From: Thermoleophilia bacterium
GTDB lineage: Bacteria > Actinomycetota > Thermoleophilia > Miltoncostaeales > Miltoncostaeaceae
Direction: 5' to 3'
DNA: 43,364 bases
Assembly: GCA_028285405.1 (NCBI GenBank)
Contig: JANQPH010000009.1
Location: 1 to 43,364, forward strand
This document shows positions 27,715 to 37,367 of this stretch, in pieces. The stretch's first letter is position 1. The number at the start of each line of letters is the position of its first letter. The notes under the pieces are model-generated. The model did not search any database and was not told the DNA's origin. It saw nothing but the letters and a program-made list of their open reading frames with translations. A program made the translations under genes and the position numbers.

Positions 27715-28734
27715 ATGGACTGGGACCTGCTCGAACGGCTGACCGCGGCGCCGGGCCCCTCGGGACACGAGGGCCCGATCCGGGAGGTCGTGGCCACCGA
27801 GCTGCGCGACGTCGCCGAGGAGATCAGCGTCGACCCGGTCGGCAACCTGGTGGCACGCCGGCCCGGCCCCGGGCCGCGCGTCGTGCTCGCGGCGCACATG
27901 GACGAGCTCGGCTTCATCGTGAGCCATGTCGAGGAGGACGGCTTCCTGCGCGTCGTCACCGTCGGCGGTCACGACCCCAGGGCGCTGGTCGCCGCGCGGG
28001 TGGTCGTGCACGGCCGGGAGGATCTGCCCGGTGTGATCGGCGGCAAGCCGGTGCACCTGATGGAGCGGGCCGAGCGCGAGAAGGCGCCCAAGGAGAAGGA
28101 CCTCTACATCGACATCGGCCTCGACGGGGAGCGGGCGCGCGAGCTCGTCCGGCCGGGCGACCCGGTGACGCGCGCGGCCCAGATCACCCGGCTCGGTGAC
28201 CTGGTGAGCAGCCCGGGCCTCGACGACCGCGCCGGGCTCTACGTGATGCTCGAAGCCATGAGGACGCTCGGCGAGCATCGGTGCGATCTGCATGCGGTGG
28301 CGACGGTACAAGAGGAGGTCGGCCTGCGCGGGGCCCGCGTGGCCGCCTCACGGATACGTCCGGAGCTGGGGCTGGCGATCGACGTGACGCTCGCCAACGA
28401 CGGCCCCGGCGTGCCCGCCCGCGAGCGCGTCACCGAGCTCGGCGAGGGGGCGGCCATCAAGGTGCTCGACAGCTCGGTCATCGTCCCCACGGACATGGTC
28501 GATGCGCTGGTCGGGTTGGCCGAGGAGCACGAGATCCCGCACCAGCTCGAGGTGATGCCGCGAGGCGGCACGGACACGCGTGAGCTCGCCCTCGGAGGCG
28601 ACGGGGCACGTGCGGGCGGGGTCTCGATACCGCTTCGTTACACCCACCAGATCACCGAGGCGGCTCACCCCGACGACCTGGATGCCTCGGTGGCGCTCGT
28701 GCGGGCGTTCTGCGAGCACGCCCACGAGGTCTAG
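27715..28734 (+). CDS. M42 family metallopeptidase (glutamyl aminopeptidase / FrvX-like)
   Basis: M42 enzymes are cytosolic di-zinc aminopeptidases, often dodecameric, that finish peptide breakdown. The 339-residue protein has all expected ligands: VVLAAHMDELGF (His, Asp), VSSPGLDDRAG (bridging Asp), VQEEVGLRGA (catalytic Glu and Glu ligand), AIDVT (Asp) and PLRYTHQITE (His). The PDZ-like lid domain inserted after the first metal motif is visible as GGHDPRALVAARVVVHG to TRLGDLV. ATG start, probably leaderless. Its TAG stop shares the palindrome CTAG with the stop of the convergent EAL gene. Confidence 0.93.
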   Translation: MDWDLLERLTAAPGPSGHEGPIREVVATELRDVAEEISVDPVGNLVARRPGPGPRVVLAAHMDELGFIVSHVEEDGFLRVVTVGGHDPRALVAARVVVHGREDLPGVIGGKPVHLMERAEREKAPKEKDLYIDIGLDGERARELVRPGDPVTRAAQITRLGDLVSSPGLDDRAGLYVMLEAMRTLGEHRCDLHAVATVQEEVGLRGARVAASRIRPELGLAIDVTLANDGPGVPARERVTELGEGAAIKVLDSSVIVPTDMVDALVGLAEEHEIPHQLEVMPRGGTDTRELALGGDGARAGGVSIPLRYTHQITEAAHPDDLDASVALVRAFCEHAHEV

Positions 28735-29642
28735 CCGGGCGGTCGTCTCCTCGGGCGCAGCGTCCGGGGGGTGCCAGCCAGGATCGTCAGCAGGTCGTCG
28801 ATCGTCGCCAGTGGGGTCGCCAGGGCCCGGGCCGCGGCGACGCCGCGGTCGACGACACTCGAGCGGGTGATGGTCGAGGCGGTCGTGCTGTCGACCTGCG
28901 GGTACCCCTGCGACGGTCGGGCGATCCGGAATCCCTGCGCCATGTGCGCGCCGGCCCGCTTGACCGCGGTCAGCTCGCGGATCGTCTCGATGCCCTCGGC
29001 GATCACCCTCGGGCCCAGGGCGACGCAGAAGGTGGTCAGGATCCTCACGATCTCGAGCAGGTGGAAGCTCTGGTCGCAGCCGCGCACGAGCGACTGGTCG
29101 AGCTTCACGTAGTCCGGTCTCAGCAGCGTGATGCGCTCGAGGCTGTTGTTGCCGGTCCCGGTGTCGTCCAGGGCCACGCCGACCCCGGCACGTTGCAGGG
29201 CGCCGGTCGCGTCGGCGAGTGCCGCCAGGTCGTCGACGTCGGCGTGCTCGGTCAGCTCGATGACGACGGACTCGGGGGAGCCGCCGCGGGCGCGGATCGC
29301 GTCGGTCAGCCACTGCGTGGTGAGGGTGCCGTCGAGCAGCGTCGTCGGCGACGCGTTCACGAACAGCCGGGCCCCGGTCGGAACGTCCGGGAGGGAGTCG
29401 AGGGCGCTCTCGACGCAGGCGTGATCGAGCTGGCTTCCCAGGCCCGCTCCCTCCGCGGCGCGGAATGCGTCGAGGGGATCGTCGAACGCGGCGACCATCG
29501 GGCGCATCAGCGCTTCGTACGCGTGTGTCCTCGCGTCGTCGAGGCACACCACGGGCTGATGGTGGATGGTGATCGCCTGCGGCCCGAGCAGCGTGCGGGC
29601 CTCGGCGTCCCGACGCATCACGGCCGGGTCGCTGGTGCTCAT
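28731..29642 (-). CDS. EAL domain protein, probable c-di-GMP phosphodiesterase
   Basis: EAL enzymes linearise cyclic di-GMP. The 303-residue cytosolic protein is a single EAL domain (about residues 20-250) with no sensor domain and a tail of about 50 residues. Catalytic positions look intact: YEALMRP, LFVNASP (Asn), VIELTEH (Glu), VALDDTGTGNNSLERI (Asp-Asp; the usual DDFG Phe is Thr), YVKLDQSLV (Lys), VIAEGIET (Glu) and AQGFRIARP (Gln). Activity is therefore plausible. ATG at 29642 chosen because the N-terminal domain begins soon after; no strong Shine-Dalgarno or -10 is visible. It is divergent from dxr across 112 bases. Confidence 0.88.
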   Translation of the reverse strand: MSTSDPAVMRRDAEARTLLGPQAITIHHQPVVCLDDARTHAYEALMRPMVAAFDDPLDAFRAAEGAGLGSQLDHACVESALDSLPDVPTGARLFVNASPTTLLDGTLTTQWLTDAIRARGGSPESVVIELTEHADVDDLAALADATGALQRAGVGVALDDTGTGNNSLERITLLRPDYVKLDQSLVRGCDQSFHLLEIVRILTTFCVALGPRVIAEGIETIRELTAVKRAGAHMAQGFRIARPSQGYPQVDSTTASTITRSSVVDRGVAAARALATPLATIDDLLTILAGTPRTLRPRRRPPG

Positions 29643-35051: not shown

Positions 35052-35125
35052 CGGGGCGTGGCGCAGTCTGGTAGCGCACCCGGCTGGGGGCCGGGCGGTC
35101 GCAGGTTCAAATCCTGCCGCCCCGA
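35052..35125 (+). tRNA. tRNA-Pro (anticodon GGG)
   Basis: A full cloverleaf folds: acceptor CGGGGCG/CGCCCCG, D stem GCGC/GCGC, anticodon stem CCCGG/CCGGG with loop CTGGGGG (anticodon GGG, reading CCC and CCU), T stem GCAGG/CCTGC with TTCAAAT, discriminator A at 35125. CCA is not encoded, so the CCA-adding enzyme is needed. It follows proS, the gene for its own synthetase. Confidence 0.96.
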
Positions 35126-35131
35126 TTTCGT

Positions 35132-35146
35132 GTGGCCGGTGGCCAC
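35132..35146 (+). terminator. Hairpin after tRNA-Pro, possible weak terminator
   Basis: GTGGCC/GGCCAC with a 3-base loop lies 6 bases after the tRNA. No T-tract follows, so the role in termination or processing is only suggested by position. Confidence 0.3.
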
Positions 35147-35169
35147 GAACCCGCGAATCGCTCATCGCG

Positions 35170-35175
35170 TACGGT
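35170..35175 (+). promoter_or_regulatory. -10 element of a probable leaderless promoter (CDP-alcohol phosphatidyltransferase)
   Basis: TACGGT ends 8 bases before the GTG at 35184, and no Shine-Dalgarno lies between. Confidence 0.45.
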
Positions 35176-35183
35176 GTTCCGCC

Positions 35184-35810
35184 GTGAGCGCGAACGGCAA
35201 GGTCGACATCGGTCGGGCGGCGCCCAGAGGCGGCGTGACTCGGCGCCTCCGCTGGCTGCCGAACGCCGTCACGGCTGCCCGGCTCGTCGGGGTCCCGGTC
35301 GTCTCGGCCGTCGCCCATCGGGCCCGGAGCCGCACGTCCCCGCCCGCGGCGCTTCTCTTCGGCGCGGTTGCCGCCACCGACTACGTGGACGGGGCGCTCG
35401 CCCGGCGACTGGACGCCAAGACCCGGTTCGGGCAGATCGCCGACCCCGCGGTCGATCGGCTCCTCAACCTCGCCGGGATCGTCGCCCTGCTCCAGGTCAG
35501 GCGCCTCCACGCCGCGGGCCCGGCGCTGCTCATCACGCGGGAGCTGCTCGCGGTGACCGGGTTCATCGTCGCCGCTCGGCGGGGGGTCCTGCTCGAGGTC
35601 GACCTCGCCGGCAAGGGCTCGTCGGCCCTCACGATGATCGCGACGGGCCTCGCGCTGCTCACCGACGACCCGGTGGCCGACGTGGTCTTCTGGATCGCGG
35701 TCGTGGCGGCGATCGGCACGTTCGTGCACTACGCGTTGCACGCGCGGCGCCTGCTCGCCGAGGCGAACGGGGCTGAGGTCGAGGCACACTCAACCTCGAG
35801 CCAAGCTTGA
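35184..35810 (+). CDS. CDP-alcohol phosphatidyltransferase family membrane protein
   Basis: These enzymes swap CMP of CDP-diacylglycerol for an alcohol head group (glycerol phosphate, inositol phosphate and others). The 208-residue protein carries the full signature D-x2-DG-x2-AR-x8-G-x3-D-x3-D as DYVDGALARRLD then AKTRFGQIADPAVDR (about residues 67-93), with four to five membrane helices. The length fits PgsA-like members, but the head group cannot be assigned. It would use CDP-DAG from CdsA. GTG start fixed by the N terminus of the domain and the -10; the frame is open further upstream through the tRNA gene. Confidence 0.9.
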   Translation: MSANGKVDIGRAAPRGGVTRRLRWLPNAVTAARLVGVPVVSAVAHRARSRTSPPAALLFGAVAATDYVDGALARRLDAKTRFGQIADPAVDRLLNLAGIVALLQVRRLHAAGPALLITRELLAVTGFIVAARRGVLLEVDLAGKGSSALTMIATGLALLTDDPVADVVFWIAVVAAIGTFVHYALHARRLLAEANGAEVEAHSTSSQA

Positions 35811-35834
35811 GGGCGCCGACCCCTTGGCTATTCT
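35807..35834 (+). promoter_or_regulatory. Sigma70-type promoter of the RsiG-like gene
   Basis: TTGAGG (35807-35812) and TATTCT (35829-35834) are separated by 16 bases. This is the best two-hexamer promoter in the window. It gives a leader of about 25 bases with the Shine-Dalgarno AGGAG at 35855-35859, 6 bases before the ATG. Confidence 0.65.
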
Positions 35835-35865: not shown

Positions 35866-36135
35866 ATGGAAGTCAGCCCCGACCTCACCACGCTGTCGGA
35901 TGACGAGCTCAAGGCGCTGATCCACGAGCTCACCGAGCAGGAGCGGGACATCTCGTATCAGCGGCGGGTCCTGCACGGGCGCATCGAGCTGCTGAAGAAC
36001 GAGCTGGTGAAGCGGCTTCAGGGCCAGGACGAGAGCGTCCTGGGGGACGTCGACGTCGAAGAGCTCAGCCGCATCCTCGCCGGCAGGCTCCCCGATGTCG
36101 TTCGCCTCGAGGGTGACGACGAGCCTCGCGGGTAG
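35866..36135 (+). CDS. RsiG-like small coiled-coil protein, possible c-di-GMP-responsive anti-sigma factor
   Basis: The 89-residue protein is a helical hairpin/coiled coil with no membrane segment. Residues 27-45, ERDISYQRRVLHGRIE, fit E-x3-S-x2-R-x3-H-x3-E. The c-di-GMP signature of the Streptomyces anti-sigma factor RsiG, which holds the sporulation sigma factor WhiG, is E-x3-S-x2-R-x3-Q-x3-D, present twice; a Rubrobacter homologue is known with a single copy that works as a homodimer. This protein therefore resembles the single-copy type with two conservative changes (Q to H, D to E). Its sigma partner is not in the window. ATG with AGGAG; followed by the FHA gene 27 bases on. Confidence 0.72.
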   Translation: MEVSPDLTTLSDDELKALIHELTEQERDISYQRRVLHGRIELLKNELVKRLQGQDESVLGDVDVEELSRILAGRLPDVVRLEGDDEPRG

Positions 36136-36162: not shown

Positions 36163-36618
36163 ATGACGTTCTGTCCGGAATGCGGTCTGCAGCAGAGCCA
36201 GGGGAACCGGTTCTGCGTTCGGTGCGGGACCGAGCTCGCCACCGAGGGCCAGCCCACCGATGTCACGGGGCCGATCCCGATCGAGGAGATCCGCGGCGAC
36301 GCCCCGCCGGCGGCGCTGCGCGCGGGCGACGTTCCGTCGCTCTCGGTCCGATCGGGCGAGCCCGCGGGCACGGTCTTCCTGCTCCACGGCGACCTGATCA
36401 CGATCGGGCGGAGCCCGGAGTCGGACATCTTCCTCGACGACATCACGGTCTCGCGCGAGCACGCGCAGCTGCATCGGGCAGGCCCGCACTATGAGCTGCG
36501 TGACCTCGGCAGCCTGAACGGGACCTACGTGAACCGCGACCGGATCGAGATCGGCTCCGTGCTGCGCGACGGCGACGAGGTCCAGATCGGCAAGTTCCGG
36601 CTGGTGTACTTCGGATGA
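36163..36618 (+). CDS. FHA domain protein with N-terminal zinc ribbon (GarA-neighbourhood type)
   Basis: FHA domains bind phosphothreonine, so the protein probably reads Ser/Thr kinase signals. Residues 4-22 form a zinc ribbon (CPECGLQQ ... RFCVRCG). A Pro-rich linker follows, and the FHA domain (about 58-150) has TIGRSPESDIFLDD, SREHAQLH and LGSLNGTYVNRDRI, with the phosphothreonine-binding Arg, Ser and Asn in place. The position before a MerR regulator matches mycobacterial garA (Rv1827)-Rv1828, but GarA has no zinc ribbon and the ETTS kinase site is not seen here. Its stop overlaps the next ATG. Confidence 0.9.
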   Translation: MTFCPECGLQQSQGNRFCVRCGTELATEGQPTDVTGPIPIEEIRGDAPPAALRAGDVPSLSVRSGEPAGTVFLLHGDLITIGRSPESDIFLDDITVSREHAQLHRAGPHYELRDLGSLNGTYVNRDRIEIGSVLRDGDEVQIGKFRLVYFG

Positions 36619-37367
36619 GAGAGGCGATCGAGGAGCCGACTCCCGAGCCCGCCGGCGAGCCGGCCGGCAACGGCGAGTCCATGACGATCGGTGCGGTCTG
36701 CACGCTGCTGCAGGCCGACTTCCCGACCCTCAGCATCTCGAAGATCAGGTACCTGGAGGACCAGGGCCTGATCTCGCCCGAGCGCACGCCGGGCGGCTAC
36801 CGCAAGTTCCCGCCGCGCGAGGTCGAGCGCCTGCGGACGATCCTGCGACTGCAGCGGGACGAGTTCCTCCCGTTGCGCGTGATTCGCCAGGAGCTCGAGA
36901 GCTCGGCGACCGGCGCCTTCAGCGTGGCCGAGCAGGCCCGGCAGATGAAGCGCGCGCAGCTGAGCGAGCCGGCGCCGACGCGGCGCTACAGCGCCGACGA
37001 GGTCGCCGAGAGCACGGGGGCCGACCACGACCTCGTGCGTGCGCTTCGCGAGTACGGCCTGGCCGGGACCGACGCCGGTTTCGACGAGACCGATCGCGAG
37101 ATCGCCAAGACCGCGGCCGAGCTGGCCGGGTACGGGGTGGAGCCCCGCCACATCCGTCTGTTCCGGGTCGCGGCGGAGCGCGAGGCGGGTCTGCTGGAGC
37201 AGCTGGTCGCGACGGGCCTGCGCTCGAGACATCCTGATCGGCGACGCGAGGCGCTCGAGCGCCTGGAGGCGCTGGCGGCGCTGGCCTCGCACATGCGCCA
37301 GCTCATGTTGATCGCCGAGCTGCGCGAGTTCGTCGGGACCGACGGTCGGGGAAGTCCCGGCAGGTAG
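36615..37367 (+). CDS. ftsR: MerR family regulator, FtsR-like
   Basis: The 250-residue protein has an N-terminal MerR winged helix (about 22-95): SISKIRYLEDQGLI, SPERTPGGYRKF and VERLRTILRLQRDEFLPLRVI. A linker follows, then a second helical domain (about 120-200: RYSADEVAESTGADHDLVRALREYGL) that looks like a second MerR-type helix-turn-helix, as in Corynebacterium FtsR, which activates ftsZ. The garA-ftsR gene order supports this call; the ftsZ link here is inferred. ATGA overlap with the FHA gene. The stop TAG is part of the TAGGCT -10 of apt. Confidence 0.85.
   Translation: MREAIEEPTPEPAGEPAGNGESMTIGAVCTLLQADFPTLSISKIRYLEDQGLISPERTPGGYRKFPPREVERLRTILRLQRDEFLPLRVIRQELESSATGAFSVAEQARQMKRAQLSEPAPTRRYSADEVAESTGADHDLVRALREYGLAGTDAGFDETDREIAKTAAELAGYGVEPRHIRLFRVAAEREAGLLEQLVATGLRSRHPDRRREALERLEALAALASHMRQLMLIAELREFVGTDGRGSPGR

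What the first reader, a model, noticed from the sequence alone, without database searches (positions are those of the whole stretch)
35866..36135. Single-motif RsiG-like protein: a candidate c-di-GMP-controlled anti-sigma factor
The sequence shows one copy of E-x3-S-x2-R-x3-H-x3-E in a small coiled-coil protein. The known Streptomyces RsiG has E-x3-S-x2-R-x3-Q-x3-D twice, and a single-copy homodimeric homologue has been described in Rubrobacter. The two substitutions (Gln to His, Asp to Glu) fall on nucleotide-contacting positions, so binding may be altered or preserved by similar chemistry. The gene has its own good promoter and sits beside a phosphothreonine reader and an FtsR-like regulator, in a window that also encodes an EAL phosphodiesterase.
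Basis: partly seen in the sequence, partly recalled or inferred. Interest (0 to 1): 0.75.

Follow-up and report, generated by a model that had tools for sequence, protein, structure and literature searches.

The report
Single-motif RsiG anti-sigma factor, FtsR-linked
The gene encodes a small RsiG-type protein, very probably one that uses the signal molecule c-di-GMP to hold a sigma factor inactive; the type was already known, but this one has an unusual residue at a signal-reading position and appears to be controlled by the cell-division regulator encoded next to it.

Summary
The 89-aa ORF (35866-36135, +) is a single-motif RsiG: Pfam RsiG 67.7 bits (cut-off 27), best solved relatives Rubrobacter RsiG, motif E26-S30-R33-H37-E41. 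Across 149 class genomes RsiG and WhiG co-occur (115 both, 24 neither, 10 one only).

Two corrections. Gln-to-His is ordinary: 66 of 68 class members have His, and a His-type RsiG binds c-di-GMP in published assays. Single-motif RsiG was already described in Thermoleophilia. Asp-to-Glu is the real oddity: it ends the first motif only within this family, switching several times. The WhiG ortholog also carries a rare Gly-to-Ala at a c-di-GMP contact.

New here: rsiG opens an rsiG-FHA-ftsR operon conserved class-wide, and its promoter holds a palindrome matching the FtsR binding motif. Such sites occur in 43 of 68 rsiG promoters against 3 of 2894 other windows, and twice before this genome's ftsZ, suggesting that FtsR ties RsiG supply to cell division. 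The host lacks flagellin and PilM; WhiG's targets are unknown. Nothing was tested biochemically.

The parts
35866..36135 (+). rsiG, single-motif RsiG anti-sigma factor (89 aa); motif E26, S30, R33, H37, E41; predicted long helix 12-53 and C-terminal helix 61-71
   Evidence: Pfam PF22802 67.7 bits; PDB 7lq2/7lq3/7lq4; AlphaFold2 pLDDT 81, top Foldseek PDB match 7lq4 RsiG chain, E 0.17, prob 0.95
35986..35988 (+). GAG codon of E41, the position that is Asp (guanine-reading D74 of Rubrobacter RsiG) elsewhere
35791..35815 (.). FtsR-type operator, CAACCTCGA-gccaagc-TTGAGGGCG (consensus AACCCTCAA-N7-TTGAGGGTT); overlaps the pgsA stop codon and the -35 element
   Evidence: C. glutamicum FtsR motif AACCCTAAAGTAAAGGTTGAGGGTA (PMC6683498)
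35807..35834 (+). promoter, -35 TTGAGG (35807-35812), 16-nt spacer, -10 TATTCT (35829-35834)
   Evidence: phylogenetic footprint in relatives; not listed by the generic scan
36163..36618 (+). FHA protein (Zn-ribbon + FHA, OdhI/GarA-like), second gene of the operon, 27 nt after rsiG
   Evidence: FHA downstream of rsiG in 61 of 69 loci
36615..37367 (+). ftsR, MerR-family regulator, overlaps the FHA gene by 4 nt
   Evidence: NF050798 222.9 bits; ftsR downstream of rsiG in 65 of 69 loci
35058..35810 (+). pgsA-like CDP-alcohol phosphatidyltransferase, conserved upstream neighbour
   Evidence: PF01066 89 bits; detected upstream in 40 of 69 loci
28731..29612 (-). EAL-domain protein (candidate c-di-GMP phosphodiesterase), elsewhere in the window; start codon not settled
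   Evidence: PF00563 145 bits

Best explanation
The gene encodes a single-motif RsiG. Two copies form an antiparallel coiled coil that holds a c-di-GMP dimer through E26, S30, R33, H37 and E41 of each chain. The loaded dimer then clamps a WhiG-type sigma factor and keeps it from RNA polymerase; a fall in c-di-GMP frees the sigma factor. Glu in place of Asp at position 41 most likely still pairs with the Watson-Crick edge of the outer guanine. The gene is the first of an rsiG-FHA-ftsR operon whose promoter carries an FtsR operator, so FtsR probably sets the supply of RsiG together with FtsZ. Shown here: family, motif, operon, operator sequence, presence of WhiG and c-di-GMP enzymes, co-occurrence. 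Inferred: dimerisation, ligand binding, sigma binding, FtsR binding and the direction of its effect.
For: Pfam RsiG 67.7 bits; PDB hits only to RsiG proteins; top fold match is the RsiG chain of the Rubrobacter complex. Residues that touch WhiG in Rubrobacter RsiG are kept or conservative: D39=D6, R72=R39, R77=K44, E91=E65 (read off the alignment; contacts). The own genome has two FliA/WhiG sigma factors over cut-off, 260.7 and 240.5 bits, and eight GGDEF domains. RsiG and WhiG co-occur in 115 of 149 class genomes, are both absent in 24 and discordant in 10 (Fisher p 2e-18, ignoring relatedness); genus g4 of the same family lacks both and keeps only 0-3 GGDEF. E, S, R and H of the motif are invariant in 26 aligned homologs while position 41 varies D/E/Q. 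Operator: sites scoring 13 or more of 18 in 43 of 68 rsiG upstream regions against 3 of 2894 other windows; in the whole own genome 7 sites against 2 for the control pattern, of which two precede ftsZ and one is the rsiG promoter, while three of the other four lie inside likely coding ORFs.
Against: No binding or structure experiment. The last motif residue is Glu, not reported for any tested RsiG in the paper read. The WhiG ortholog has Ala where Gly61 contacts c-di-GMP, and an unusually long branch (1.18), so the switch could be drifting. The flagellar-type promoter TAAA-N15-GCCGATAA is not enriched in the genome (13 against 12 control), and flagellin and PilM are absent, so no target process is identified. 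The window's own operator is one of the weaker sites (13 of 18; 7% of shuffles as good).
Confidence: 0.8

Rival explanations
1. A degraded or ligand-altered RsiG: the Asp-to-Glu change and the Gly-to-Ala change in its WhiG weaken or abolish c-di-GMP control, leaving a constitutive or non-functional anti-sigma factor in a lineage that lacks flagella and PilM-type pili.
For: Both changes fall on c-di-GMP contacts; long branch of the WhiG ortholog; no flagellin or PilM.
Against: Glu is kept in seven further family genomes of the sample, several of which have a canonical K-G-R WhiG, flagellin and PilM (G067, G105, G119). E26, S30, R33 and H37 are all intact. The Asp/Glu/Gln state changes about four times on the tree, as expected of a tolerated exchange. 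The genome keeps eight GGDEF domains.
Confidence: 0.12
2. RsiG here mainly serves the second sigma factor (contig C47), which keeps K-G-R, instead of the diverged WhiG ortholog (C34).
For: C47 sigma has K57, G61 and R62 equivalents and belongs to a paralogous clade shared with G055, G146 and G049 (100/99).
Against: Most class genomes have one RsiG and one FliA/WhiG sigma factor, and those placed on the tree group with C34, so that is the likely ancestral partner. K-A-R is a conservative change.
Confidence: 0.25
3. The palindrome is the binding site of another MerR-type or promoter-binding protein, or only a conserved -35 region, and FtsR does not control rsiG.
For: The right half overlaps the -35 hexamer; binding was not tested.
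Against: The left half (AACCCTCAA, upstream of the -35) is conserved as well, with spacing fixed at 7; the same architecture is the published FtsR motif in Corynebacterium; two copies precede this genome's ftsZ, the main FtsR target elsewhere.
Confidence: 0.25

Closest known systems
RsiG of Rubrobacter radiotolerans, (RsiG)2-(c-di-GMP)2-WhiG complex (PDB 7lq4; PMC8325347)
   Same: Single-motif small protein, one coiled-coil helix, same spacing of motif residues, partner WhiG in the genome, closest in the PDB by sequence and fold. In a Rubrobacter taiwanensis genome rsiG is also followed by FHA and ftsR (L180).
   Different: Motif ends Q...D there and H...E here; R. radiotolerans WhiG is thought to drive type IV pili, whereas this genome has no PilM.
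RsiG of Conexibacter woesei (Thermoleophilia; PMC8325347)
   Same: Single motif with His at position four; binds c-di-GMP (Kd 25 uM alone, 1.7 uM with WhiG).
   Different: Ends in Asp, not Glu.
RsiG of Streptomyces venezuelae (PDB 6pfj, 6pfv)
   Same: Same family and motif chemistry, same sigma partner family.
   Different: Twin motif, monomeric, controls sporulation; in Streptomyces loci rsiG is not linked to FHA-ftsR.
FtsR of Corynebacterium glutamicum (PMC6683498)
   Same: MerR-type FtsR encoded directly after an OdhI/GarA-type FHA gene; 25-bp inverted-repeat motif with 7-nt spacing; ftsZ as target.
   Different: No RsiG was found in the C. glutamicum control genome; here rsiG heads the operon.

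Membership tests
RsiG family (Pfam PF22802) | Score over the curated cut-off | tested here: met
   67.7 bits against 27
RsiG family (Pfam PF22802) | Motif residues E, S, R and Q/H at spacing 3-2-3 | tested here: met
   E26, S30, R33, H37
RsiG family (Pfam PF22802) | Long coiled-coil helix with flexible N- and C-terminal extensions | tested here: met
   AlphaFold2 helices 12-53 and 61-71, disordered tail; best PDB match 7lq4 RsiG
Canonical c-di-GMP motif E(X)3S(X)2R(X)3[Q/H](X)3D | Final motif residue Asp, which reads the outer guanine | tested here: not met
   Glu41; conservative, shared by eight of 68 class sequences, all in this family
Single-motif homodimeric RsiG | One motif only; homodimer | tested here: inconclusive
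   One motif confirmed; the dimer could not be modelled or measured here
c-di-GMP-dependent anti-sigma switch | WhiG-type sigma factor in the same genome with K57, G61, R62 contacts | tested here: inconclusive
   Two sigma factors present; C47 has K-G-R, the ortholog C34 has K-A-R
c-di-GMP-dependent anti-sigma switch | Genome makes and degrades c-di-GMP | tested here: met
   Eight GGDEF domains; GGDEF-EAL protein and in-window EAL protein
c-di-GMP-dependent anti-sigma switch | Binding of c-di-GMP and of WhiG | not testable with these tools
   Needs purified proteins
FtsR regulon | FtsR palindrome in the promoter | tested here: met
   13 of 18 positions in the window; class-wide enrichment
FtsR regulon | FtsR binds and alters transcription | not testable with these tools
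   Needs gel shift or reporter assay

The most novel reading that the evidence does not exclude
In Thermoleophilia the c-di-GMP/WhiG switch is wired into cell-division control: FtsR autoregulates an rsiG-FHA-ftsR operon through the same operator it uses at ftsZ, so that the amount of anti-sigma factor follows division or nutrient state, while c-di-GMP sets its activity. In this lineage the switch, with a Glu-ending motif, governs a process other than flagella, type IV pili or spores.
Probability: 0.5. Interest if true: 0.65.

Novelty: new variant of a known kind. Interest (0 to 1): 0.5.

Why it matters
RsiG-WhiG was described as the only known sigma/anti-sigma pair run by c-di-GMP, and no paper found here addresses how rsiG is transcribed in the basal Actinobacteria. 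A conserved FtsR operator in front of rsiG across a whole class gives a direct, cheap test of a link between c-di-GMP signalling and cell division. The Glu variant, with an altered WhiG, tests how strictly the guanine-reading residue is fixed. A genome with RsiG and two WhiG-type sigma factors but neither flagellin nor PilM also asks what else this switch controls.

Tried and rejected
Gln-to-His as an unusual change: rejected, 66 of 68 class members have His and it is published as functional. WhiG targets by flagellar promoter: TAAA-N15-GCCGATAA with up to 2 mismatches gives 13 hits against 12 in the control; a TCAA variant gives 18 against 6, but many hits look coding and no coherent function appears downstream. 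Flagella and PilM-type pili as output: not found in this genome; its only type II/IV secretion ATPase lies in a Tad-like cluster, not shown to be WhiG-controlled. Correlation of Asp/Glu with the second sigma factor: no, Glu also occurs in genomes with one WhiG (G067, G105, G119). First relatives scan failed for lack of conserved stretches and was repeated with closer sequences. A first alignment (A1) held a faulty reference and was replaced by A2.

Full report
What is there. The ORF at 35866-36135 (+) encodes 89 aa and starts with ATG behind AGGAG. It matches Pfam RsiG at 67.7 bits, cut-off 27, and among solved structures only RsiG proteins: Rubrobacter 7lq2/7lq3/7lq4 at about 5e-10 and Streptomyces 6pfj/6pfv at 3e-9. 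The motif is E26-x3-S30-x2-R33-x3-H37-x3-E41, once. AlphaFold2 gives one long helix (12-53), a short one (61-71) and a loose tail, mean pLDDT 81; the best PDB fold match is the RsiG chain of the Rubrobacter complex, 42% identical over 71 columns (E 0.17, so weak alone, as expected of a single helix, but consistent).

Where it comes from. The window lies in a 2.4-Mb draft genome, 97.6% complete. Named relatives of the protein are Miltoncostaeaceae and other Thermoleophilia.

What is known. Schumacher et al. 2021 (PMC8325347) described single-motif RsiG in two Rubrobacter and three Thermoleophilia species, showed that it forms homodimers that bind a c-di-GMP dimer and WhiG, and that His at position four is common and works (Conexibacter: Kd 25 uM alone, 1.7 uM with WhiG). 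So neither the single motif nor His is new.

What is unusual. In 68 class sequences the fourth residue is His in 66 and Gln in 2; the fifth is Asp in 59, Glu in 8, Gln in 1, and the Glu and Gln cases are all in this family. Among 80 named loci Glu ends the first motif only in close relatives of this protein (one second motif of a twin form also ends in Glu). On a tree of FtsR, PgsA and WhiG the Asp/Glu/Gln state needs four changes. Asp74 reads the Watson-Crick edge of the splayed guanine in Rubrobacter; Glu can make the same pair, so the likeliest reading is a tolerated exchange that keeps binding. That is inference.

The partner. Two FliA/WhiG sigma factors exceed the curated cut-off: contig C34 (260.7 bits) and C47 (240.5 bits). 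C34 groups with the single WhiG of its relatives, on a long branch; C47 belongs to a separate clade with G055, G146 and G049. The c-di-GMP contacts K57, G61, R62 (Streptomyces numbering, confirmed on the alignment) are K-A-R in C34 and K-G-R in C47; Ala at 61 was seen in no other sigma factor of the set. Either could be the partner.

Signal and loss pattern. The genome has eight GGDEF domains, a GGDEF-EAL protein and the in-window EAL protein. Across the same 149 genomes of the class, RsiG and WhiG occur together in 115, both are missing in 24, and 10 have one only. Genus g4 of the same family lacks both and keeps 0-3 GGDEF domains. Related genomes are not independent, so the Fisher p of 2e-18 overstates the case, but the pattern is clear.

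Output unknown. No flagellin and no PilM were found in this genome, though relatives have them. A Tad-like cluster is present. The flagellar-type promoter is not enriched.

The operon and its operator. rsiG is followed after 27 nt by an FHA gene, which overlaps ftsR by 4 nt. ftsR lies downstream of rsiG in 65 of 69 class loci and the FHA gene in 61; the arrangement is also seen in Rubrobacter and, for ftsR, in Coriobacteriia, but not in Streptomyces or Pseudonocardiaceae. Upstream of rsiG a palindrome AACCCTCAA-N7-TTGAGGGTT is conserved: 43 of 68 upstream regions score at least 13 of 18 against 3 of 2894 other windows of the same loci, and in 55 of 68 loci the best site of the whole locus is the one before rsiG. 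In the window it reads CAACCTCGA-gccaagc-TTGAGGGCG at 35791-35815 and is the only site of that strength in 43 kb. The published FtsR motif of C. glutamicum is AACCCTAAA-GTAAAGG-TTGAGGGTA (PMC6683498), near-identical halves with the same spacing. In this genome two further sites lie just before ftsZ. Genome-wide, 7 sites with up to 3 mismatches were found against 2 for the control pattern: two at ftsZ, one at rsiG, three inside likely coding ORFs, one (C7:404) not assigned. The conclusion that FtsR controls the rsiG operon is therefore well supported by sequence but not shown by binding. No paper in the library holds both the words RsiG and FtsR.

Limits. No binding, no dimer model, no expression data. 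The motif score was set by hand from the published motif made symmetrical; the window's own site is among the weaker ones. Relatives are mostly metagenome-assembled genomes, so absences carry some risk.

Noticed in passing
L105 (G127), L103 (G003), L104 (G141), L102 (G015), L190, L191, L195: Twin-motif RsiG proteins occur inside Thermoleophilia at the same rsiG-FHA-ftsR locus; in G127 the halves are 72% and 78% identical to a single-motif relative, which suggests duplications in place, independent of the Streptomyces one (the 2021 paper reports only single-motif forms in this class). The 50-column tree cannot settle it.
   Followed up: partly
G000 contigs C52:52095-53048 and C14:42073-43005 (L255, L256): Two FtsZ-family genes over the curated cut-off in one genome; only the C52 copy has FtsR-type sites upstream.
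   Followed up: partly
L182, L183, L186, L188, L189, L196, L209: RsiG homologs in Coriobacteriia genomes, a class not mentioned in the 2021 paper, also with ftsR downstream.
   Followed up: partly
L085 (G119), L086 (G122), L090 (G078): Diverged RsiG paralogs or variants in the same family, including one ending in Gln and one with a degenerate motif.
   Followed up: no
G000 contig C52, L152:7649-12728: Tad-like pilus cluster (RcpC/CpaB-like, TadZ-like and T2SSE ATPases) with the only T2SSE ATPase in the genome; a candidate target of the WhiG switch, untested.
   Followed up: partly
window 28731-29612 (-): EAL protein without a GGDEF domain; signatures EALMR, DDTGTG and EGIET are present, so it may be an active phosphodiesterase.
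   Followed up: no
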